This document shows positions 1 to 10,198 of a stretch of 10,198 bases of DNA, in pieces. How positions within the stretch are numbered: the first letter of the stretch is position 1; every line of letters begins with the position of its first letter. The position numbers and the translations under genes were made by a program. The notes under the pieces were generated by a model. It searched no databases. It saw only the letters and a list, made by a program, of their open reading frames with translations, and had not been told where the DNA came from. The DNA comes from a bacterium (GTDB taxonomy: Bacteria; Krumholzibacteriota; Krumholzibacteria; LZORAL124-64-63), in NCBI GenBank assembly GCA_030592025.1, contig JAUUZX010000014.1, positions 1 through 10,198 on the forward strand, given 5' to 3'.

Positions 1-402
1 CCCCAGCATGAGCACGTAGGCCGCCGGTGCGGTCATGACGAAGATGACGACGGCGCCCACCAGGGCCGCCGGCCGGCCGTACCGCCGCTCCAGCAGGTCC
101 GGCACCGTGAGGACGGCGCTGCGGCGGGCGCGGCGGGCCAGCCACAGGGCGAAGAGGCCCGCGTACAGGTAGTAGGGCACACCGAAGACGAGCCAGTTGC
201 TCACGCCGAATTTCCAGGTGTACTCGCCGACGCCGAGGATGCCCCCGTACCAGGTGGTCACCAGGGAGGCCGTGAAGGCGGGCAGGGTGAGGCGACGGCC
301 GGCCACGAGGTAGTCGACGGCATCGCTGGTCGTCGACCGGAAGAGGCGGATCACCACGAAGAGCAGGAACAGGACGTAGACCAGAACGGCCGGGTGGATC
401 AC
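1..402 (-). CDS. Sodium:solute symporter (SSS/SLC5 family), N-terminal fragment, probable thiamine transporter
   Basis: Partial gene: the first 134 codons are visible and the frame stays open to the left edge. It is predicted to be an inner-membrane Na+-coupled uptake carrier. The start is hydrophobic (VLVYVLFLLFVVIRLF), followed by DYLVAGRRLTLPAFTASLVTTWYGG at residues 30-54, typical of the first helices of SSS transporters. TVPDLLERRYG at 99-109 matches the family's loop before the third helix. Translation starts at GTG (402-400), which overlaps the TGA stop of the thiamine pyrophosphokinase gene as GTGA, so coupled translation is likely. Third gene of a TPP-riboswitch operon, so the substrate is inferred to be thiamine or a precursor. 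A predicted SSS/PanF-like thiamine-precursor transporter (ThiV) is known from comparative genomics, but I cannot test whether this is its orthologue. The family call is firm; the substrate rests on context. Confidence 0.88.
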   Translation of the reverse strand, partial: MIHPAVLVYVLFLLFVVIRLFRSTTSDAVDYLVAGRRLTLPAFTASLVTTWYGGILGVGEYTWKFGVSNWLVFGVPYYLYAGLFALWLARRARRSAVLTVPDLLERRYGRPAALVGAVVIFVMTAPAAYVLMLG

Positions 403-1127
403 GGCTCGAGGTCCCCGAACACATCGCCCGAAATCTCCGCTTTCCGGTCCACCGTTACCAGCAGCGAACCTTCGCCCACGGTGATCAGCAGCGGCGACAT
501 GGCCACCCGGTTGCTGACCGTGGCGAAGGCGCCGGTCTGGAGCGTCTCGCCCAGCAACGGGTAGAGGGCGCCCTCCATGACGATGCCCTCGACCGTCCCG
601 GCCAGGGGCAACAGGGAGAAGCGCGTGCCCTCGGGCAGATCCCAGGAGGCGCTCATGCCCGGGCCCAGGCGCACCATGTCGGCGAAGGGGCCCGCGATGC
701 ACAGGCGCAGACGGTCGGCGAAGCGCTCGAGCAGGTGGCAGTTGTAGATGGTGTGGTCCAGGCGCCAGCCCGTGGCCCCCAGCAGAATCGCCTCGGTGAT
801 GCCGTGGTCGGCCAGGTACAGCAGGGCCTTTTCGCTGTCGGTCGTGCTCTGGTCGTCGACCTGCAGGTAGCGCGGCCCGTCACGGCCGTCGATGATGCGG
901 CCGGCCAGGGAGTCGAAGTCGCCGATGACCAGGTCGGGCACCCGCGGCAGTTCGTCGTAGGGATGGCCGGCGCCGTCGGCGCAGACGAAGATGTCGGCGC
1001 CCTCGAGCCAGTACTCGAGCAACTCCGGCTCGGGGGGCGGGCCGTCGCACAGCACGACGGCACGGGTTCCCTTGCGCGGGAAGATGGGGCAGGTGGCGCC
1101 GCCGGGTTCGCGATCCGTGTCAGTCAT
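399..1127 (-). CDS. thiN: Thiamine pyrophosphokinase
   Basis: Cytoplasmic enzyme of 242 residues that transfers pyrophosphate from ATP to thiamine, giving TPP directly; it is a salvage enzyme. Visible family motifs: CADGAG (49-54), IGDFDS (68-73) with the metal/nucleotide-binding acidic residues, DDQSTTDSEKAL (91-102), and GATGWRLDHTIYN (117-129), corresponding to the usual G-GGR-DH motif with a tryptophan in place of one glycine. The C-terminal half (about 165-228) is beta-rich and ends in GTVEGIVMEGALYPL and GAFATVSNRV, matching the thiamine-binding domain and its SN motif. Length is normal for a bacterial enzyme. The ATG overlaps the stop of the upstream receptor gene by one base (TGATG), and no Shine-Dalgarno sequence is visible before it, which points to termination-reinitiation. 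Its position behind a TPP riboswitch independently supports the function. Confidence 0.95.
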   Translation of the reverse strand: MTDTDREPGGATCPIFPRKGTRAVVLCDGPPPEPELLEYWLEGADIFVCADGAGHPYDELPRVPDLVIGDFDSLAGRIIDGRDGPRYLQVDDQSTTDSEKALLYLADHGITEAILLGATGWRLDHTIYNCHLLERFADRLRLCIAGPFADMVRLGPGMSASWDLPEGTRFSLLPLAGTVEGIVMEGALYPLLGETLQTGAFATVSNRVAMSPLLITVGEGSLLVTVDRKAEISGDVFGDLEP

Positions 1128-3400
1128 CAGAAGTCGTAGTCCAATCCGGCGACGAAGTTCCGTCCGCCCGCGGGTGTGTAGTGGTTCTCACCGTACCAGT
1201 ATCCCCATGTTTCGTACTCGGTGTCAGCAATATTCCTCAGATGGAGGAAGGCCGTCGCGCCCTCCAGCGGCGCGAACCCCGACTTGCCGACGTCGAGCCA
1301 CAGGGACAGGTCGACGGTGGTCCAGGGGTCGATGGTGCGGTCGTCGTCCCCCGTGTTGTCCAGGTGCTGGCGGCCCGTGTTGCGCAAACGAAGGCGCGTG
1401 CGCAGGCCACCATGCCAGGAGCGGCCCCAGGTGGCCATGACCAGGTGCTGGGGGAACAGGGCGATGGGGTTGCCCGCGTAGTCGTGGACGGACCCGTCCC
1501 AGTCGTGGAAAAGGAACGTGTCGAACTCGTCCCAGCTGCGGCTGCCGGCCACCGCGATGTGGTCGTCCTCGCTCAGCTGTACACGCAGGCCCAGTTCGAC
1601 GCCCCGGTGCAGGGTCTGGCCCGCGTTGCCGCGGATCGAACTGCCGTCCTCGCCCACGCCGCCCAGGGGCACGATCTCGTTCTCGAAGTCCATCCAGTAA
1701 CCGCCCACGGTGAGGCTCGCCTTCTCACCGCGCCAGGAAAAGCCCACCTCGTAGTCCGTGACCTCCTCCTCCTGCACCAACGGGTCGGACCACTCGGTGT
1801 AGGCGACGGAGCCGTCGGCGTTGCGCACCTGGCGGGAGTTGCGGAACAGGGGCTGGACCCCCAGGTCGGACCCGCTCTGCCAGGTGTCGAAGAGCTCGCC
1901 GTCGGTGGGCTCGCGGTGGTTCACGCCCACCGAGCCGTACACCTGCAGGTCGCCGTTCCAGGGACGGGCGGGCACGGTCCAGTTCAGCGCCCCCTTGGGG
2001 TTGAAGAAGTCCCAGTCGACGGTGTAGGCGTTGAGCTGGTCGCCGGTGAAGTTCTTCTCCTCCAGTTGACGGAACGCGTACTCCTTGTGCTGGAAGTGGA
2101 GGTCGGCCGTGAGGGTGAGGCCCGGCGCCACCTCGTAGCGCTGGTTGGCGTAGAGGGAGAAGGCGTCCTTGTCACCGGTGTACTGGTGGTACTTGAACTC
2201 GTCGCTGAAGTCGGCCGTGGAGAAGCCCTCGGCCCACAGGACCTTGCCCCAGTGGTTCGAGTGGAAGGTGTACCAGTCGCCCCCCACCAGCAGACGGCCC
2301 CGGTCCTGCTCCCAGGTCAGGCTCGGCACCCAGCCCACGTGTTCCTTGCGCACCCATTTCTGGCGGATGAGGTCGACCTCGTCGTCGGACCCCACCCCCG
2401 GCAGGGTGTCCAGGGAGTAGGCGTGGGCGTCGGCGCCCTCCTTGAAGTTCTCGTAGAAGCCCTCGCCCATGATGTAGTAGACGCGGCTGTCCAGGGTGAC
2501 CCGGTCGCCGAGGTAGAACGTGTTGCCCAGGGTGTAGTGGGGCTGCCGGAAGTCGTCGACGGCGTTGTGGTAGGTCTCCACATTGGCCCGACGGTTCACG
2601 GCCAGCACCGACTCGGGAACCGCGTCCCAGGCGTGCCGGGTGACCTCGCGACCGGTCCACACGTCGACCCGCGTGGTCTGGCGATCGGTCTCCCACAGGC
2701 CGGTCCAGAACAGGCCCCAGCCATCGTGGCCGCTGCGGTCGCGGTAGCCGTCGCTCTCCTGGCGGGAAAGGCGAAAGCTGGACGACAGCCCCTGGCCCAG
2801 ATCACCGGTCTCGTAACCGACGGCCTGGCGCTGGTAGCCGTAGCTGCCCGTGCCCAGGGAGACGCGACCGGCGGGTTCATGGCCCAGGCGTCGCGGCTCG
2901 ATGTTCACCGTGCCGCCGATGGCGGTCATGCCGCCCACCGAGTTGGTGACGCCGCGCTGGATCTGGATGTCCTCGACGCTCCCGGCCAGGTCGGGCATGT
3001 CCACCCACCAGATCTGGTGGTCCTCGGGATCGTTGAGGGGGACGCCGCCGAACAGCACGCCGACCCGGCGCTGGTCGAAACCGCGGACCTTCAGGTAGGT
3101 GTAGCCTAGGCCGCTGCCCGCGTCGCCATAGGCGAAGACGCCGGGTTGGGACTGGAGCAGCATGGGCAGCTCCAGGTCGGGCTCCCGCAGGTCGAGCTCG
3201 GCCCGCCCGATGTTGGTGACGGCCAGTTGGGTCGCGGTGTCGTAACGGCTGGCCGTGACGAGGATGTCGTCCGCCCGGTGGAGCGTCGTGTCCCGCGGCG
3301 CGTCGGCGGCGAGCACCGGCGAGGCGAGGATGTAGCCGATGATCACGACCGTGACGAAGGCCGCCGTGAAGGCCAGAGCCCGGTATAGAAAGGAACGCAT
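1127..3400 (-). CDS. TonB-dependent outer-membrane receptor, probable thiamine receptor
   Basis: Outer-membrane gated beta-barrel of 757 residues, energised by TonB-ExbB-ExbD. I place the start at the ATG at 3400: it opens a clean signal peptide (MRSFLYRALAFT, a hydrophobic core, cleavage near VLA/AD around residue 31). A GTG nine codons upstream keeps the frame open but has no RBS and would bury the signal peptide. A TonB-box-like DDILVTASR lies at residues 44-52. The plug domain follows, with LQSQPGVFAYGDAGSGLGYTYLKVRGF, then VGVLFGGVPLND and IQRGVTNSVGGMTAIGGTVNI. The rest is barrel with alternating aromatic strands, ending RNFVAGLDYDF with a terminal Phe. It is first gene after a TPP riboswitch and overlaps the kinase gene, so thiamine is the likely ligand. 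This parallels the riboswitch-controlled receptor-PnuT-kinase operons described in Bacteroidetes. Ligand identity is inferred from context, not from binding residues. Confidence 0.93.
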   Translation of the reverse strand: MRSFLYRALAFTAAFVTVVIIGYILASPVLAADAPRDTTLHRADDILVTASRYDTATQLAVTNIGRAELDLREPDLELPMLLQSQPGVFAYGDAGSGLGYTYLKVRGFDQRRVGVLFGGVPLNDPEDHQIWWVDMPDLAGSVEDIQIQRGVTNSVGGMTAIGGTVNIEPRRLGHEPAGRVSLGTGSYGYQRQAVGYETGDLGQGLSSSFRLSRQESDGYRDRSGHDGWGLFWTGLWETDRQTTRVDVWTGREVTRHAWDAVPESVLAVNRRANVETYHNAVDDFRQPHYTLGNTFYLGDRVTLDSRVYYIMGEGFYENFKEGADAHAYSLDTLPGVGSDDEVDLIRQKWVRKEHVGWVPSLTWEQDRGRLLVGGDWYTFHSNHWGKVLWAEGFSTADFSDEFKYHQYTGDKDAFSLYANQRYEVAPGLTLTADLHFQHKEYAFRQLEEKNFTGDQLNAYTVDWDFFNPKGALNWTVPARPWNGDLQVYGSVGVNHREPTDGELFDTWQSGSDLGVQPLFRNSRQVRNADGSVAYTEWSDPLVQEEEVTDYEVGFSWRGEKASLTVGGYWMDFENEIVPLGGVGEDGSSIRGNAGQTLHRGVELGLRVQLSEDDHIAVAGSRSWDEFDTFLFHDWDGSVHDYAGNPIALFPQHLVMATWGRSWHGGLRTRLRLRNTGRQHLDNTGDDDRTIDPWTTVDLSLWLDVGKSGFAPLEGATAFLHLRNIADTEYETWGYWYGENHYTPAGGRNFVAGLDYDF

Positions 3401-3452
3401 GGCACACACCCCAGTGGTGGTGGCCACGCCGGTTGCAGTGGGACAGGGACAG

Positions 3453-3478
3453 AAAACGGCACCCGAAGATGGGTGCCG
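3453..3478 (-). terminator. Intrinsic terminator of the TPP riboswitch expression platform
   Basis: On the minus strand an 8-bp perfect stem (CGGCACCC / GGGTGCCG, arms 3471-3478 and 3457-3464) closes a six-base ATCTTC loop and is followed directly by TTTTCT. It lies 8 bases after the aptamer's P1 3' strand and about 50 bases before the receptor ATG, the expected place for a riboswitch attenuator. The T-run is short (four plus one). The aptamer's GGGTG (within 3564-3568) could pair with the CACCC of the 5' arm and serve as a weak antiterminator; that pairing is inference. Confidence 0.75.
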
Positions 3479-3486
3479 AGTGAGGC

Positions 3487-3575
3487 CCGTTTCCCTACGC
3501 CGGCATGATCCGGTTCAGGTTCGGAGGGTCTTTCTCAGACGGCCCGCTCATTGGCGGGACGTCACCCCTAACGGT
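3487..3575 (-). ncRNA. TPP riboswitch (THI element) aptamer
   Basis: Cis-regulatory RNA that binds thiamine pyrophosphate and lowers expression of the downstream operon. Conserved blocks appear in order on the minus strand: CCGTT (P1 5' strand, 3570-3574), AGGGGTG, a CCCGC/GCGGG hairpin in the variable P3 extension, the invariant CTGAGA (3533-3538), ACCCT, GAACCTGA (3515-3522), CCGGATCATGCCGG, then CGTAGGGAA, and AACGG (3487-3491), which closes P1 with CCGTT. CTGAGA is the pyrimidine-binding core; the region around GGATCATGCCGGCG corresponds to the diphosphate-binding arm. Followed by an intrinsic terminator, so control is most likely by transcription termination. The receptor, kinase and transporter genes downstream agree with a thiamine regulon. 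Confidence 0.96.
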
Positions 3576-3582
3576 CGCCGGA

Positions 3583-3611
3583 AAGGTAGCGAGCCAAGCC
3601 ATGGGTGTCAA
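3583..3611 (-). promoter_or_regulatory. Sigma70-like promoter of the thiamine operon
   Basis: On the minus strand a perfect -35 box TTGACA (3606-3611) is separated by exactly 17 bases from TACCTT (3583-3588), which keeps the TA...T of the -10 consensus. The expected transcription start falls around 3575, at the first base of riboswitch helix P1, so the transcript would begin with the aptamer. This positional fit is the best argument that the promoter is real. Confidence 0.65.
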
Positions 3612-3889: not shown

Positions 3890-4561
3890 CTACTGCTCCA
3901 CCACCACTCCCGGATAGGTCGTCATCTCCCAGGGAATGTGACCACTGTCGGCAAAGCTGATGAGCTTGGTCGAGCCATCGGCGCGCACCTGCACCACCGT
4001 CAGGCTGCAGTTGGCGATGCTGGCCTCCAGCCAGTTGAGGGGGTCGTTCGCCAGCACCCGGGCGGTGAACCAGCGGATGACGTTGCCGTGGCAGACGATC
4101 ACGTCGTGTTCGTCGGCGTCCGCCGTCGCCGGCCGGAAGATCCGCGCCCAGGCCGCCTCGAGCGCGGCTTCGCACGCCTCCGCCTCCCCCGGCTCCAGGT
4201 CGTCCATGATGTCCTGACGGGTGGTCGCCGGCGTGCATTCGCGAATATCGTCGTGCAGCGCCGGTTCGAGCCCCGGGAAACGCGAGGCGATGAGCTCCGC
4301 CGTCTCACGGGCCCGGTTCATGGTGCTCGCCTGGATCGACGTGATCGTCACCGGCTGCGCATCCAGGCGCGCCGCCACGAGCCGGGTCTGCTGACGGCCC
4401 AACGCCACGAGTTCGCCCTCGTCGGGCGTGTCGACACCGTGCTCGTACTCGCCGTGGCGGATCAGGTAGATGTTGCGGACCGGCTCGTCGCGGGTGGGCA
4501 GGACGGCAAGAGCCGAAGCCGCGCCGACAACGAGAAGCAGCAGTACGATCACGAAACGCAT
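3890..4561 (-). CDS. Exported or membrane-anchored PGAM5-like histidine phosphatase
   Basis: Histidine phosphatase superfamily (phosphoglycerate-mutase fold), 223 residues. The first 20 residues (MRFVIVLLLLVVGAASALAV) form an uncleaved anchor or signal peptide, so the catalytic domain is probably periplasmic. The RHG motif is IYLIRHGEY (31-39), with His36 the expected phosphohistidine nucleophile and Arg35 its partner. STMNRARETAE (79-89) is the second motif with Arg83, RECT (107-110) supplies the likely acid Glu108, and IVCHGNVIRWF (155-165) carries His158. The CH-NVIR block and the late ADSGHIP resemble PGAM5-type Ser/Thr phosphatases more than glycolytic mutases. All expected catalytic residues are present. 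The substrate is unknown; secreted relatives such as Ais act on lipopolysaccharide phosphates. No clear Shine-Dalgarno precedes the only plausible ATG. It lies 82 bases after the PorV-like gene on the same strand and may share its transcript. Confidence 0.85.
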   Translation of the reverse strand: MRFVIVLLLLVVGAASALAVLPTRDEPVRNIYLIRHGEYEHGVDTPDEGELVALGRQQTRLVAARLDAQPVTITSIQASTMNRARETAELIASRFPGLEPALHDDIRECTPATTRQDIMDDLEPGEAEACEAALEAAWARIFRPATADADEHDVIVCHGNVIRWFTARVLANDPLNWLEASIANCSLTVVQVRADGSTKLISFADSGHIPWEMTTYPGVVVEQ

Positions 4562-4643: not shown

Positions 4644-5705
4644 CTAGAAAATGTACGCCACCCGCGCACCCCAGCCGTCCTCGGTGTGGTCATCCCCGGT
4701 GTCGTAGAGATCGCCGTACCCGATGCGGACCCAGTGGAGCTCCACCCGCCACGGTCCCATGGCCGGCTCCGCCAATCGCAGACCCAGGCCCCAGGTGGTC
4801 GCGTGGTCCGGCAGGGACTGGTCCGTCCCCCAGCGCAGGGAGAGCACCTGCAACGCAGTGACCTCGGCGCCCCACTGGCTCTCGTCCGACCACGCGCTGT
4901 CGATGAATTCGGTGCGGGTGAACGCCGCCCGGACGGCCACGGCGTCCCGGTCTCGGCCCTCGGGGCGGAAGCCGGCGCCGAAGGTGAAGCCCAGGCGCAC
5001 GTGGCGCGGAAGGAGAGCCTCCCGCTCATCGAACGAGACCTTGGCCTTAAAGATGTTCTGCCAGGCCGCGGCGCAGGCCACGCTCGTCCAGCCGCCGACA
5101 TGATCCCGCCGCCAACCGAACGTCGCCCCCGCGTCGATGCCCTCAGTCGTCTTGTTCATCGTCTCTTCATCGTTGAGTTCGCTCTTCATCTCATAGTGCC
5201 GGTAGTTCATCCCGAACGCCCACTGGCGTCGGGTCGAATCGCCGCGATGGTCGCCATCACCCAGGCTCAGGCCCACGACGGTCAGGCGTTCATGGCCGCG
5301 GATGTAGTCGCCCGTGCCACTTGGCTCGTACGCGGTGCGGAGCTCGTTCTCCCAACTGATTTCATTGCGCGCCACCGTCACCCGCCACGACCCCAGGGAA
5401 ACACCGGCCGCCAGGGTCTCCAGGTCGATCTCCGCCAGGTAGTTCATGCGGTCGTAGGAAACCGTGGCGGCGGGGCCCTCATCCAGGTACGCGGGGTTGA
5501 CCAGGACGGCCTGGGGACCACCGCCCTCGGCCAGATCAGCATTGCCCATGGCGGTCCGGCGGGCGTCGGTGAAGAGCCCCTCCCACCGGAGCACATAGGT
5601 GCCCGCGTTGGCGAACCCGGCGGCCGTCGCCAACTGTGGGACAACCCCCGCGACGAGCACGAGAGCCGCGGCCAGGAACAGGTGGGTCACAGGACGGCGG
5701 GGCAT
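4644..5705 (-). CDS. PorV/FadL-like outer-membrane beta-barrel protein
   Basis: Predicted outer-membrane barrel of 353 residues. The start at 5705 is chosen because an AGGAGG lies 7 bases upstream and the protein then opens with a standard signal peptide (MPRRPVTHLF, a hydrophobic core, cleavage near ATA/AG at about 29). A start at 5753 would fall at or upstream of the predicted transcription start. Just after cleavage comes the block DARRTAMGNADLAEGG followed by VLVNPAYL, which matches the conserved N-terminal signature of PorV/PorQ/UPF0164-type proteins (ordinarily G-R-AMGGA ... NPA-L). The rest alternates charged and aromatic residues typical of barrel strands and ends VAYIF with a terminal Phe. 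PorV is a type IX secretion component, but many family members are not, and no T9SS gene is visible here, so I do not assign that role. Transcribed away from the spermidine-synthase-like gene. Confidence 0.78.
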   Translation of the reverse strand: MPRRPVTHLFLAAALVLVAGVVPQLATAAGFANAGTYVLRWEGLFTDARRTAMGNADLAEGGGPQAVLVNPAYLDEGPAATVSYDRMNYLAEIDLETLAAGVSLGSWRVTVARNEISWENELRTAYEPSGTGDYIRGHERLTVVGLSLGDGDHRGDSTRRQWAFGMNYRHYEMKSELNDEETMNKTTEGIDAGATFGWRRDHVGGWTSVACAAAWQNIFKAKVSFDEREALLPRHVRLGFTFGAGFRPEGRDRDAVAVRAAFTRTEFIDSAWSDESQWGAEVTALQVLSLRWGTDQSLPDHATTWGLGLRLAEPAMGPWRVELHWVRIGYGDLYDTGDDHTEDGWGARVAYIF

Positions 5706-5712
5706 GGGATAT

Positions 5713-5718
5713 CCTCCT
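5713..5718 (-). promoter_or_regulatory. Shine-Dalgarno site that fixes the PorV-like start
   Basis: AGGAGG on the minus strand (within CGAGGAGGATATCCC) sits 7 bases before the ATG at 5705. An upstream in-frame Met at 5753 has no such site and would place a charged segment before the signal peptide. Confidence 0.8.
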
Positions 5719-5751
5719 CGAATACGCAGGGGTTCCTGATATGGGTGTTTC

Positions 5752-5781
5752 ACACTAGGCGATTCCGACGATCGTTGTCAA
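5752..5781 (-). promoter_or_regulatory. Sigma70-like promoter of the PorV-like gene
   Basis: On the minus strand a perfect TTGACA (5776-5781) is followed after 18 bases by TAGTGT (5752-5757), which keeps the TA...T of the -10 box. Transcription would start near 5745, giving a leader of about 40 bases that contains the strong RBS. It has the same architecture as the thiamine-operon promoter in this window (perfect -35, weak -10). Confidence 0.55.
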
Positions 5782-5817: not shown

Positions 5818-5867
5818 GCCCACGTCTCGCGATGCGTGAACGGCCCACCCCAACCCTGGACAGGACC

Positions 5868-7394
5868 ATGCTGCGTATCTACCTGCCCGCGTCGGTCATC
5901 GTCAGCGGCGCCACCGTGCTGGCCGTCGAGCTCCTGGGCACCCGGGTCATCGGCCCGTGGTACGGCGTCGGCCTCTACCTGTGGTCGGCCCTCATCGGCG
6001 TGACCCTGGCCGCCCTCAGCGCCGGATACGCCCTGGGAGGCCGCTGGGCCGACCGGGGGCCCGACCTGGACCGCTACAGCCTGCTCTTCCTCCTGGCCGG
6101 CGTATGGATCTCGCTGGTGCCCTGGCTGCGCGACCCCGTGCTGGCGGCGAGCGAGCCTCTCGGCCTGCGGGGCGGCGTGCTCGCCGCGGCGACGGTGCTC
6201 TTCTTCCCGCCCCTTGTCCTGCTGGGCATGGTCAGCCCCTACGCCATCCGTCTCAAGGCCTCCTCCCTGGACGAGGTGGGCCGCACCGCCGGCAACCTCT
6301 ACGCCCTGTCCACCCTGGCCAGCGTCGTGGCGGCCATCGCGACGGGTTTCTGGCTCATCCCCAACCTCGGGGTGGCCCGCCTGCTCGCGGTGTTGGGCGG
6401 CCTGCTGGTGGCGACCGGATTGTGGGGACGTCTGGCGGGACGCGGACGGGCGACCGCCGCAGCCGGCGTGCTGCTGCTGCCGCTGCTGGCCGGAGGCGCC
6501 GGGGTGCTGACTCCGGGCGAGACCCCCGCCCCGGAGCGCGGTCTGCTGGCCATCGAGCAAAGCGCCTACGCCGAGATCCGGGTCCTCGAGCACAAGGGCC
6601 AGCGCTACATGCTCATCGACGGCGCACCCCACACCATCGTCGACCCCGTCGACTGGCGATCCGACTACCCCTACGTCGATGTGCTGGAGATCGGCAAGCA
6701 CCTGCTTCCGGAACCCGGTCGCATGCTGCTGGTGGGGTTGGGTGGCGGGTCGGTGGCCAAGAACTACGCCGCGGACGGCTGGCGGGTCGATGCGGTGGAG
6801 ATCGACCCCGTGGTCACGGCCATGGCCCACCGGTTTTTCGGCCTGACCATCGACGAGGCGACAGTCCACGAGGAAGACGGCCGCAGCTTCCTCAACCGGC
6901 AGGCTCCCGCGAGCTACGACCTCATCGTGCTGGACGCCTTCGGCAGCAGCTCGATCCCCTTCCACCTGGTGACCAAGGAAGTCTTCGGGCTGATCCGCTC
7001 ACGGCTGGCGCCGGACGGTCTGCTGGCGGTGAACGTGGAAGCGGTGGGCTGGCACGACCCCCTCGTCCATGCGGTGGCCGCGACCCTGGGGCAGGTTTTT
7101 GCCGAGGTGAGTGTCCTGCCCATCGCCGAGCCGCCCAACACCCTGGGCAACCTCATCGTGCTGGCGGCCGACACATCCCTCGACCTGGCCGAGGACCTGG
7201 CGGCGCCCACGTCGCGCTGGTCAAGGCAGTACAACCTCATCCACGCCTGGCAGAACCGGTTCGAGGTGGACGACCCGTCGGCAAGGATCCTCACCGACGA
7301 CCTCAACCCCGTGGACGTCTGGTCCGACCGCGTGAACGTCGTGGCCCGAAACCAGCTGCACACTTTCTTCGGGCGCAGCGGACTCGATCGCTAG
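5868..7394 (+). CDS. Polytopic membrane protein fused to a spermidine-synthase-like domain
   Basis: Fused protein of 508 residues, of the type annotated as 'fused MFS/spermidine synthase'. Residues 1 to about 210 are hydrophobic with several helices (for example ASVIVSGATVLAVELLGTRV, LYLWSALIGVTLAALSAGYALG, GVLAAATVLFFPPLVLLGMVSPYAIRL). Residues about 225-495 form a Rossmann methyltransferase/aminopropyltransferase-like domain: LLVGLGGGSVAK (287-298) is the nucleotide-binding glycine loop, AVEIDP (309-314) the acidic ribose-binding motif, EEDGRSFL (335-342), then YDLIVLDAFGSSSIP (350-364) and ILTDDLNPVD (474-483). True aminopropyltransferases have a D-S-DP-type loop where this has DAFGSS, so spermidine synthesis is doubtful. 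The substrate is unknown. The start at 5868 puts the first helix at the N terminus; ATGs at 5808 and 5832 are in frame but lack an RBS, and the RBS at 5868 is also weak (GGACAGGA). Only plus-strand gene here; it converges with the lipoprotein gene, 15 bases apart. Confidence 0.85.
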   Translation: MLRIYLPASVIVSGATVLAVELLGTRVIGPWYGVGLYLWSALIGVTLAALSAGYALGGRWADRGPDLDRYSLLFLLAGVWISLVPWLRDPVLAASEPLGLRGGVLAAATVLFFPPLVLLGMVSPYAIRLKASSLDEVGRTAGNLYALSTLASVVAAIATGFWLIPNLGVARLLAVLGGLLVATGLWGRLAGRGRATAAAGVLLLPLLAGGAGVLTPGETPAPERGLLAIEQSAYAEIRVLEHKGQRYMLIDGAPHTIVDPVDWRSDYPYVDVLEIGKHLLPEPGRMLLVGLGGGSVAKNYAADGWRVDAVEIDPVVTAMAHRFFGLTIDEATVHEEDGRSFLNRQAPASYDLIVLDAFGSSSIPFHLVTKEVFGLIRSRLAPDGLLAVNVEAVGWHDPLVHAVAATLGQVFAEVSVLPIAEPPNTLGNLIVLAADTSLDLAEDLAAPTSRWSRQYNLIHAWQNRFEVDDPSARILTDDLNPVDVWSDRVNVVARNQLHTFFGRSGLDR

Positions 7395-7915: not shown

Positions 7916-9034
7916 CTAGTTGCCGACCATGGTGGCCCCGAAGAAGCCCAGGACCTCGTCGATGGGATTGGCGATGGCCGTCTGGGACGAACCGGCAAAC
8001 AGCAGGCCCACCGCGCACGGGTCGGTGAGCACGTCCTCGACCATGAGCGAACCCGAGTCGCCGCCGCCCAGGAACTTGCTGGCCCGGTTGGTGATGACGA
8101 TCTGGCCGGTGTAGGTCTGGGTGAAGGCCGCTTCGCCGGCACACTCGTTCTCGTAGGCCACGCTGATGGTGGCGTTGAGGGCCGAGACCGAACTGCGGGT
8201 CAGACCCGTCGTGCGGCCACTCTTCTTCACGGGCTGGCCGATGTAGGCTGCCACGGTCTGGGCACTCAGGGTGCCGATCTCGAGGATGGCGCCGTCGGCC
8301 GAGACCATGCCGTCGATGATGGTCGCCGTCGAGGCGTCCACGTTGGAGCCCGGGATCGAACTCGTCACCACGAGGGTCGCCACTTCCTGGGCCGACCCGG
8401 CGTTGCAGGCCACGTCGATGAGACCCGGTTGGATGATCGGATCACCCGTCGTGGCCACTCGGTCGTTGCCGCCGGCGACGATATCCGCCTCGAACACATG
8501 ATAGTTGCTGAGGATGCGCTTCTGGCTGCCGACCTGGATCAGCGAACCCAGGGTGCCGCCGCAGCAGTAGCCGTTGGCCAGATCGTAGGCCCAACCGCCG
8601 GAGGTGCCGAGCTGGATCGGCGGCGTCTGGATGACCGTGTGCGACGGGCCGCTGGAGGGCGGGCCCTTCATGGCGACGATCCTGTCGGTGATCAGCACCT
8701 GGACCTTCACGCCGTCCAGGTCCCTCGGCATGCGGTTCCGGGCTTTGTCCGAAAGCACCAGCAGCAGCACGGCGGGCTGGCCGTCGTCACCGATGGTCGT
8801 CGCGGTGCCGATGACGTCGGCGTCGGCCATCAGCGCGGGCGTGTAGTGGTCCTGGACGGCCATGACCGCACGGATGTTCGCGTTGGCCGCGCTCTTGGAT
8901 GCGGCGTCGGTCAGCTCCGTCGTCGGTGACAGTGGCGAATGGTCCGAGTCCGAGCAGCCCCAGACGCCGGCCAGTACGACCAGCAATCCGATGACGAGCA
9001 CGAAGGAGGTGTGGCGAGAATTGAGGAGTCGCAT
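7916..9034 (-). CDS. Exported NAL1-like trypsin-fold serine protease
   Basis: Secreted or lipid-anchored serine protease, 372 residues. The signal peptide (MRLLNSRHTSFVLVIGLLVV) runs to Cys27 in LAGVWGC, a lipobox with an unusual Trp at -2, followed by a Ser/Asp-rich linker. Residues about 60-122 are a small N-terminal domain (VIGTATTI, LPs-like MPRDLDGVKV). The protease domain covers about 144-370: LSNYHVF gives His179, NVDASTATI gives Asp233, and GGGDSGSLMV gives Ser327, so the triad order and motifs are those of a chymotrypsin-fold enzyme. This layout matches bacterial NAL1-like proteases. Cysteines at 157, 158, 210, 297 and 340 could form disulfides outside the cytoplasm. The start has AAAGGAG 8 bases upstream. 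Substrate unknown. Downstream hairpin at 7849-7878; next on the strand is a lipoprotein with a similar N-terminal domain. Confidence 0.87.
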   Translation of the reverse strand: MRLLNSRHTSFVLVIGLLVVLAGVWGCSDSDHSPLSPTTELTDAASKSAANANIRAVMAVQDHYTPALMADADVIGTATTIGDDGQPAVLLLVLSDKARNRMPRDLDGVKVQVLITDRIVAMKGPPSSGPSHTVIQTPPIQLGTSGGWAYDLANGYCCGGTLGSLIQVGSQKRILSNYHVFEADIVAGGNDRVATTGDPIIQPGLIDVACNAGSAQEVATLVVTSSIPGSNVDASTATIIDGMVSADGAILEIGTLSAQTVAAYIGQPVKKSGRTTGLTRSSVSALNATISVAYENECAGEAAFTQTYTGQIVITNRASKFLGGGDSGSLMVEDVLTDPCAVGLLFAGSSQTAIANPIDEVLGFFGATMVGN

Positions 9035-9254: not shown

Positions 9255-10198
9255 TCACGGGCGCGATTCACCGCCAAGCAGCGGCCGATAGAACTCGCGC
9301 CGCACCTCGTCCGCGAACCGCTCGATCTGCTGGTCGGGCACCTTCAGGTGCAGCAGGGCCTGGCGGGTCACCTCGAGCCCGGCCTCCATCTGGGGCAGGA
9401 CCACCTCATGAATGCCCAGCTCGTGCAGCTCCTCCAGCAGCCCGTCCGACTCGGCCCGCGCGACGATGTGCAGTTCCGGCCGCAGTTGCCGGGCGTGGCG
9501 GGCGATGGCGCGGGTCACCACCGGCGAAGGGGTGGTGATCAGCAGCACGCAGGCCCGGTCCAGCCCCGCGGCCTCGAGGACCAGCGGATGGGAGGCGTCA
9601 CCGTAGATGACGGCCAGGCCCTTCGTGCGGCAGGCCTCCAGGCGGTGCTGGTCCAGCTCGATGGCCACGAACGGCAGGCCCAAACGCTGCAGCACCCGGG
9701 CCACCGTGTTGCCCATGCGCCCGGCTCCCGCAACGATGACGTGGTCCCGCAACTTGTCGCGATCGATGTTGATGGTCTGGACCGGCTCGTCCCGACGGCG
9801 GCCCTGGAGGAATCCGTAGATCGGTGCGGTGGCCCGGGACACGAAGGGCGTCAGGAACATGGAGACCAGGGTGACCGCCATGATCAGCGAGTAGAGATCG
9901 GTGCCGATGCTGCCCGTGGCCAAACCGACCCGACCGATGACGAAGGCGAACTCGCCCGCCTGGAACATGGTCAGGCCCAGGGCCAGCGGCACGACGTTGC
10001 GGTAGCCGAAGGCCCGGCCCACCCCGGCGCAGATCAGGCCCTTGGCCAGGGAGACCACCGTCACCAGCCCCAGCACCAGCAGCAGGTTCTCCCGCACGAA
10101 CTGCGGATCGAGCAGCATGCCGACCGAAGCGAAGAACAGCAGCCCGAAAATGTCGCGCAAAGGGATGATATCGCTCAGGGCCTGGTGGTTGTGTTCCG
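9255..10198 (-). CDS. KefB/KefC-type CPA2 cation:proton antiporter with RCK/TrkA-N domain, C-terminal part
   Basis: Partial gene: the 5' part lies beyond the right edge, and the frame stays open to 10198, reading EHNHQALSDIIPLRDIFGLLFF. About 313 residues are visible. It is an inner-membrane monovalent-cation/H+ antiporter. Visible membrane segments include FGLLFFASVGMLLDP, LLLVLGLVTVVSLAKGLICA, VPLALGLTMFQAGEFAFVIG and LYSLIMAVTLVSMFLTPFV; ALSDIIPLRD, SVGMLLDP and FQAGEFAFV are hallmark CPA2/Kef motifs. After a basic linker comes a Rossmann RCK_N (TrkA-N) domain starting HVIVAGAGRMGNTVARVLQ (GxGxxG) with VAIELDQHRLEA (acidic end of beta-2) and VIYGDASHP. The tail after about visible residue 270 is short and may not be a full TrkA-C domain. 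The RCK domain suggests gating by NAD(H) or a related ligand, as in Kef. It is separated from the protease gene by 220 bases, so it is probably a separate unit. Confidence 0.92.
   Translation of the reverse strand, partial: EHNHQALSDIIPLRDIFGLLFFASVGMLLDPQFVRENLLLVLGLVTVVSLAKGLICAGVGRAFGYRNVVPLALGLTMFQAGEFAFVIGRVGLATGSIGTDLYSLIMAVTLVSMFLTPFVSRATAPIYGFLQGRRRDEPVQTINIDRDKLRDHVIVAGAGRMGNTVARVLQRLGLPFVAIELDQHRLEACRTKGLAVIYGDASHPLVLEAAGLDRACVLLITTPSPVVTRAIARHARQLRPELHIVARAESDGLLEELHELGIHEVVLPQMEAGLEVTRQALLHLKVPDQQIERFADEVRREFYRPLLGGESRP

What the first reader, a model, noticed from the sequence alone, without database searches (positions are those of the whole stretch)
1..3611. Compact riboswitch-controlled thiamine salvage operon: receptor, kinase, SSS symporter
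The sequence shows a promoter whose start site falls on the first base of a TPP aptamer, then a terminator, then a TonB-dependent receptor, thiamine pyrophosphokinase and an SSS symporter overlapping by 1 and 4 nt. Together these would cover outer-membrane uptake, inner-membrane uptake and trapping as TPP. Riboswitch operons of receptor, PnuT and kinase are known in Bacteroidetes; the SSS carrier in the PnuT slot makes this a variant layout.
Basis: partly seen in the sequence, partly recalled or inferred. Interest (0 to 1): 0.7.

Follow-up and report, generated by a model that had tools for sequence, protein, structure and literature searches.

The report
Vitamin B1 salvage operon with riboswitch
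This is a vitamin B1 (thiamine) uptake operon from a Krumholzibacteriota-like bacterium, probably switched by a vitamin-sensing RNA; its gene set was already described in one species of another phylum and is found here in three phyla.

Summary
RF00059 hits window 3475-3579 (-) at 63.7 bits (cut-off 54.3), behind a TTGACA-N17-TACCTT promoter and before an intrinsic terminator. Next come a TonB-dependent receptor (TBDR), thiamine pyrophosphokinase (TPK) and a window-truncated SSS symporter, overlapping by 1 and 4 nt. The promoter recurs at the same place in 22 of 22 Krumholzibacteriota leaders, a terminator-like hairpin in 24 of 24 leaders compared.

In 69 genomes of that phylum, TPK and this SSS occur in the same 33, side by side. 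None of the 33 has ThiC, ThiE or a strong ThiG match. PnuC-type carriers are nearly absent. This supports thiamine salvage by an auxotroph, with SSS as inner-membrane carrier.

The layout is neither rare nor new. The same SSS clade occurs in 40 of 82 KSB1 and 114 of 395 Bacteroidota genomes, and in 15 of 40 and 25 of 40 loci examined the order is TBDR-TPK-SSS. A TPP-riboswitch locus with these three gene types was published for Caldithrix abyssi (PMC5317091).

Open: I found no assay of this SSS clade, its relation to ThiV was not tested directly, and no conserved antiterminator was found.

The parts
3583..3611 (-). Promoter: -35 TTGACA (3611-3606), 17 nt, -10 TACCTT (3588-3583)
   Evidence: same position relative to the aptamer in 22 of 22 Krumholzibacteriota leaders; not listed by the consensus scan
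3475..3579 (-). TPP riboswitch aptamer RF00059 (P1 from 3574 to 3487)
   Evidence: 63.7 bits, cut-off 54.3
3453..3478 (-). Intrinsic terminator following the aptamer
   Evidence: terminator-like hairpin in 24 of 24 leaders against 5.8% of shuffled copies
1127..3400 (-). TonB-dependent receptor gene, 757 aa from ATG 3400 (the ORF is open from GTG 3427)
   Evidence: PF00593 1.7e-22, PF07715 3.7e-10; recurring ATG context (by eye)
399..1127 (-). Thiamine pyrophosphokinase gene, 242 aa; its start overlaps the TBDR stop by 1 nt
   Evidence: TIGR01378 102.2 bits, cut-off 76.4; PF04263, PF04265
1..402 (-). 5' part (134 codons) of an SSS-family symporter gene, GTG start, overlaps TPK by 4 nt; cut by the window end
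   Evidence: 87.5% identity over residues 23-134 to the L001 relative, whose full protein hits PF00474 at 1.3e-29

Best explanation
A TPP-repressed thiamine salvage operon in a thiamine auxotroph. When cellular TPP is low, transcription from the promoter reads through the terminator into TBDR, TPK and SSS. The TBDR brings thiamine across the outer membrane, the SSS symporter carries it across the inner membrane with sodium, and TPK converts it to TPP and so traps it. When TPP is high it stabilises the aptamer and transcription stops at the terminator. Shown by sequence: the aptamer, promoter and terminator sequences, gene identities, tight overlaps, conservation, and the pathway gaps of related genomes. 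Inferred: the off-switch logic, sodium coupling, and thiamine rather than a precursor as the substrate of TBDR and SSS.
For: RF00059, with conserved promoter and terminator. TBDR-TPK-SSS in the same order and on one strand in 24 of 26 Krumholzibacteriota loci; in L018 and L026, two contigs of one assembly, the contig end cuts off SSS or TBDR. RF00059 over cut-off on the TBDR side in 21 of these 26; L002 has a sub-threshold hit of 47.4 bits, and in L003, L006, L011 and L026 the contig ends before the leader. In 69 genomes of the phylum TPK (E 1e-3) and SSS (E 1e-30) occur in the same 33, within 100 nt in 32 of 33 and 171 nt apart in G060; an RF00059 hit lies 2.2-2.7 kb upstream on the same contig in 29 of 33, G002's being the sub-threshold one. 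None of the 33 has ThiC, ThiE or ThiG over 330 bits; 31 of the 36 others have ThiE. Without ThiE, HMP or thiazole could not be joined to TMP by the known route, which leaves thiamine as the vitamer that TPK can use. PnuC-type carriers: 1 partial hit in 69 genomes (29.5 bits, cut-off 27.3; G052, one of the 33). The SSS model (of L001) has the SSS fold: 177 PDB chains at E 0.001 or less, SGLT2 and CHT1 first, a sodium-sialic acid symporter at TM 0.77. Ser314-Thr315 align to residues 392-393 of SGLT1 by my counting in a weak segment and are invariant in 33 of 33 relatives; that these SGLT1 residues belong to the Na2 site is recalled.
Against: No transport or expression data were found for this operon. 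No conserved antiterminator pairing was found. In 9 of 40 KSB1 loci the SSS follows the TBDR with no TPK detected beside it, and in 13 of 40 neither was detected beside it, so the substrate may differ in some members. PF05690 (ThiG) gives weak partial matches in most of the 33 genomes, several over Pfam's low cut-off of 23 bits; I discount them. TPK was sought with the clade's own alignment A1, so a distant TPK in the other 36 genomes could have been missed. The window's own genome is not held, so the auxotrophy is shown for relatives only. The genomes are related and may be incomplete, so the counts are not independent events.
Confidence: 0.87

Rival explanations
1. The SSS carries a thiamine precursor (HMP or a degradation product), as proposed for SAR11 ThiV, and not thiamine.
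For: SSS proteins under TPP riboswitches were proposed as HMP carriers in SAR11 (PMC11452348, passages) and left open between HMP and thiamine by McRose et al. (PMC4260697, passages). Some KSB1 members have no TPK beside them.
Against: All 33 Krumholzibacteriota genomes with this SSS lack a ThiE match, so HMP has no known route to TPP there, and the gene is tied to TPK in 33 of 33.
Confidence: 0.08
2. The SSS is a passenger with an unrelated substrate such as proline, pantothenate or choline.
For: Profile hits to PanF and PutP, far below their cut-offs (77 against 328 and 60 against 516 bits); the choline transporter CHT1 is among the best structures. The Verrucomicrobia sequence L125 falls on the clade's side of the tree, and I saw no thiamine gene in its 4.3-kb locus (by reading the ORFs).
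Against: Beside TPK in 33 of 33 Krumholzibacteriota, 18 of 40 KSB1 and 35 of 40 Bacteroidota loci. The sequences from these three phyla, with L074 and L125, are split from eight other SSS proteins by a branch with 99/99 support; most of those eight are long branches.
Confidence: 0.04
3. The riboswitch controls only the TBDR, and TPK and SSS are made from another promoter.
For: Not excluded by sequence; there are no transcript data, and a promoter inside the TBDR gene was not sought.
Against: The genes overlap by 1 and 4 nt here. In 25 relatives SSS starts from 4 nt inside to 42 nt after TPK; the TBDR-TPK distance is larger in some, up to about 90 nt.
Confidence: 0.04

Closest known systems
Caldithrix abyssi thiamine locus Cabys_3975-3977 (PMC5317091, 2017; passages seen)
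   Same: [quoted passage not shown] interpreted as thiamine transport in a likely thiamine auxotroph.
   Different: Another phylum (Calditrichaeota). The passage does not state the order of kinase and symporter, and I did not compare the sequences.
Bacteroidetes OMthi-PnuT-Tnr3 operon (BT2390, BT2396, BT2397; PMC5613172, passages seen)
   Same: TPP riboswitch, outer-membrane receptor, inner-membrane carrier and TPK; a single operon in most genomes of that study.
   Different: The inner-membrane carrier is PnuT, not SSS, and it precedes the kinase. One of 69 Krumholzibacteriota genomes has a PnuC-type match, a partial one.
ThiV / SSSP sodium:solute symporters (SAR11, Methylobacillus, algae; PMC11452348 and PMC4260697, passages seen)
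   Same: SSS family, TPP riboswitch control, role in B1 metabolism.
   Different: HMP is the proposed substrate in SAR11. No match to the present clade at E 1e-45 among 385 alphaproteobacterial genomes; no ThiV sequence was in hand for a direct comparison.

Membership tests
TPP riboswitch (RF00059) | Covariance-model score over the gathering score | tested here: met
   63.7 against 54.3 bits, model 1-105 of 105; the optional small arm after CUGAGA (P3a, name recalled) is missing, as it is in L027, L028 and L002
TPP riboswitch (RF00059) | TPP-dependent control of downstream expression | not testable with these tools
   Terminator conserved, antiterminator not identified
Thiamine pyrophosphokinase (TIGR01378) | Profile score over the curated cut-off | tested here: met
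   102.2 against 76.4 bits; both Pfam TPK domains over cut-off
TonB-dependent receptor | Plug and beta-barrel domains | tested here: met
   PF07715 and PF00593 over cut-off
SSS symporter (PF00474) | Full-length profile match and SSS fold | tested here: met
   Tested on the full-length relative L001, not on the truncated window gene: 103.8 against 22.8 bits; fold match
SSS symporter (PF00474) | Sodium-coupled transport | not testable with these tools
   Ser314/Thr315 invariant in 33 of 33 relatives; not a transport test
ThiV / SSSP | Clusters with ThiV/SSSP rather than with other SSS | tested here: inconclusive
   0 of 385 Alphaproteobacteria at E 1e-45, no positive control, no ThiV sequence in hand
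PnuT (PF04973) | PnuC-type carrier in the operon | tested here: not met
   The third gene is SSS; 1 of 69 genomes of the phylum has a PF04973 match, partial, 29.5 against 27.3 bits

The most novel reading that the evidence does not exclude
The SSS proteins of these loci form a phylum-spanning clade of sodium-coupled thiamine importers for which my searches show no assay. In Krumholzibacteriota, KSB1 and part of Bacteroidota they do the work that PnuT does in gut Bacteroides, so a large share of environmental thiamine auxotrophs would depend on a transporter group that is not yet recognised as a thiamine carrier family.
Probability: 0.7. Interest if true: 0.5.

Novelty: new member of a known kind. 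Interest (0 to 1): 0.3.

Why it matters
It names the likely thiamine uptake route of an uncultured phylum and shows that phylum split between ThiE-bearing genomes and TPK-plus-SSS salvagers. It also shows that an SSS carrier linked to TPK, reported for one species, occurs in three phyla. That gives a defined target for a transport assay and, if confirmed, a further marker besides PnuT for predicting B1 auxotrophy from genomes.

Tried and rejected
Own-genome test: no genome is held for the window, so thiC, thiG and thiE were sought in relatives. ThiG with PF05690 gave 47 of 69 genomes (45 over the 23-bit cut-off), but only 10 exceed 330 bits; the others are partial matches of 19-37 bits, which I do not count as ThiG. 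Antiterminator: folding of 18 nascent leaders gave pairings of the terminator's 5' arm with different aptamer parts and no common partner. A conserved fourth gene after SSS: among 21 loci, the ORFs of 90 aa or more within 3.5 kb had relatives in at most 3 other loci. PDB search with the truncated SSS gave only chance-level hits; the TBDR has no PDB relative at 1e-3.

Literature: 10 searches of an open-licence library only. No held paper joins Krumholzibacteri- and thiamin. Rodionov et al. 2002 was seen only as cited in other papers. All papers used were seen as passages found by terms, none in full; besides those named above, PMC2211319 and PMC6593275 (both mention ThiV as a THI-regulated or B1 transporter), PMC2771747, PMC6281302 and PMC9870897. 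The other papers listed and PMC6977713 were seen as listings only.

Limits: the KSB1 table has 40 loci, of which L137, L165, L166 and L179 were not run through Rfam. Of 114 Bacteroidota genomes with a match I fetched 40 loci (the 20 best and 20 picked down the list), and 16 of the 40 went through Rfam. In some searches the riboswitch was sought with a core pattern of my own, which missed it in L220, L226, L228 and L239, where Rfam found one. A general TPK profile was not searched in the phylum, only alignment A1.
Full report
What is there. On the minus strand, from 3611 down to the window edge, lie a promoter, a TPP aptamer (RF00059, 63.7 bits), a terminator, a TonB-dependent receptor gene, a thiamine pyrophosphokinase gene (TIGR01378 over its cut-off) and the first 134 codons of an SSS symporter gene. 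The overlaps of 1 and 4 nt are real. The SSS fragment has no Pfam hit by itself; its identity comes from its relative L001, 87.5% identical over residues 23-134, whose full protein hits PF00474 at 1.3e-29. The predicted structure of that relative (mean pLDDT 84.7) matches SGLT2, CHT1, vSGLT and a sodium-sialic acid symporter.

Beyond chance. A search of one genome per species with the TPK alignment kept 80 loci of 442 that matched; the 26 closest (L001-L026) are of this group. They show TBDR-TPK-SSS on one strand in 24 of 26; L018 lacks SSS and L026 lacks TBDR at contig ends. RF00059 over cut-off lies upstream in 21 of 26. Of the other five, L002 has a 47.4-bit sub-threshold hit and L003, L006, L011 and L026 end before the leader. 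The promoter sits at the same place in 22 of 22 Krumholzibacteriota leaders, window included, and a terminator-like hairpin is found in 24 of 24 leaders when two from KSB1 are added; the KSB1 promoter matches are weaker (8 of 12) and further from the aptamer.

Pathway context. In 69 genomes of the phylum, RF00059 is over cut-off in 45, ThiC is found in 24 (21 over cut-off), ThiE in 31 (30 over cut-off), ThiG over 330 bits in 10, TPK in 33, this SSS in 33 and a PnuC-type carrier in 1, partial, in G052, one of the 33. TPK and SSS fall in the same 33 genomes; ThiC, ThiE and strong ThiG fall in none of these, while 31 of the 36 others have ThiE. The five left are G043 (ThiC, no ThiE) and G057, G058, G063 and G068 (none of TPK, SSS, ThiC, ThiE). 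G057 has the riboswitch and a TBDR of this kind, so there the genes may only be missing from the assembly. The 33 look like thiamine auxotrophs that salvage thiamine itself. The genomes are related and may be incomplete, so the Fisher value does not stand for independent events.

Beyond the phylum. KSB1 loci L027 and L028 have RF00059 at 79.4 and 80.0 bits and the three genes in the same order. The SSS clade is present in 40 of 82 KSB1 genomes, all at 433 bits or more. Among their 40 loci, 15 show TBDR-TPK-SSS, 9 TBDR-SSS, 3 TPK-SSS and 13 SSS with neither. RF00059 is over cut-off before the TBDR in 8 of the 15 and 7 of the 9, of which L179 was not scanned. In Bacteroidota 114 of 395 sampled genomes match at E 1e-45 or better, all but one at 311 bits or more. 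Of 40 loci fetched, 25 show TBDR-TPK-SSS, 10 TPK-SSS and 5 SSS with neither. RF00059 is over cut-off in 10 of the 16 scanned, among them 9 of 10 with TBDR-TPK-SSS; in L228 it lies 2.6 kb before the receptor match. In a tree of 70 SSS proteins, 62 are split with 99/99 support from eight other SSS proteins, two of these from the KSB1 genomes of L027 and L028; the 62 are all those of the three phyla plus L074 and the Verrucomicrobia sequence L125, in whose locus I saw no thiamine genes. The 13 Krumholzibacteriota sequences form one clade (100/99); three KSB1 sequences fall among those of Bacteroidota, which suggests some gene transfer. In Alphaproteobacteria 0 of 385 genomes match at 1e-45, without a positive control.

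Mechanism. Low TPP lets transcription run into the operon; high TPP favours termination. Receptor, SSS and TPK would form a path from outside to trapped TPP. The switch mechanism is inferred: I found no common antiterminator in 18 leaders. Sodium coupling is inferred from the family and from Ser314-Thr315.

Comparison. A locus with TPP riboswitch, TonB-dependent receptor, sodium-solute symporter and thiamin pyrophosphokinase was reported for Caldithrix abyssi in 2017 (PMC5317091, passages). The gut Bacteroidetes version uses PnuT (PMC5613172, passages). SSS proteins under TPP riboswitches are known as ThiV/SSSP. The window is thus a new member of a known kind. What is added here is the breadth of the SSS version, its exclusive pattern against ThiE in Krumholzibacteriota, and the point that these genomes leave thiamine as the likely substrate.

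Noticed in passing
window 3890-4561 (-): Histidine phosphatase gene directly upstream of the operon; a relative is found in loci L002, L005, L009 and L018 of the 26 examined, so it is a partly conserved neighbour outside the riboswitch unit.
   Followed up: partly
L173, L174, L177, L178, L179, L180, L183, L184, L189 (KSB1): TBDR-SSS pairs without a detectable TPK beside them, 7 of 9 with RF00059 over cut-off (L179 not scanned); the carrier may handle a precursor, or TPK may lie elsewhere.
   Followed up: no
L074 2262-5136: TPK, one ORF (reads like a FecR-domain protein, not tested), then an SSS of the same clade (43% identity to L001) with the Ser-Thr pair replaced by Ala-Ala and no RF00059 match at E 0.05.
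   Followed up: partly
L024: Deposited as a Gemmatimonadales bacterium, but its genome (G012) is listed in the phylum of G001 and its SSS groups inside the Krumholzibacteriota; the deposited name looks outdated or wrong.
   Followed up: partly
window 4644-5753 (-), 5832-7394 (+), 7916-9034 (-), 9255-10196 (-): Other genes: weak PorV/PorQ-like protein, fused MFS/spermidine synthase, a protein with a Nal1_C match, and the C-terminal part of a KefB/YbaL-type potassium efflux transporter.
   Followed up: no
G017, G022, G023, G025, G071, G072 (Krumholzibacteriota genomes): In ThiC-bearing genomes a TPP riboswitch hit lies a few hundred bases upstream of thiC on the same strand (over cut-off in G017, G071, G072, below it in G022, G023, G025; coordinates), so within one phylum the riboswitch serves synthesis genes in some genomes and salvage genes in others.
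   Followed up: no
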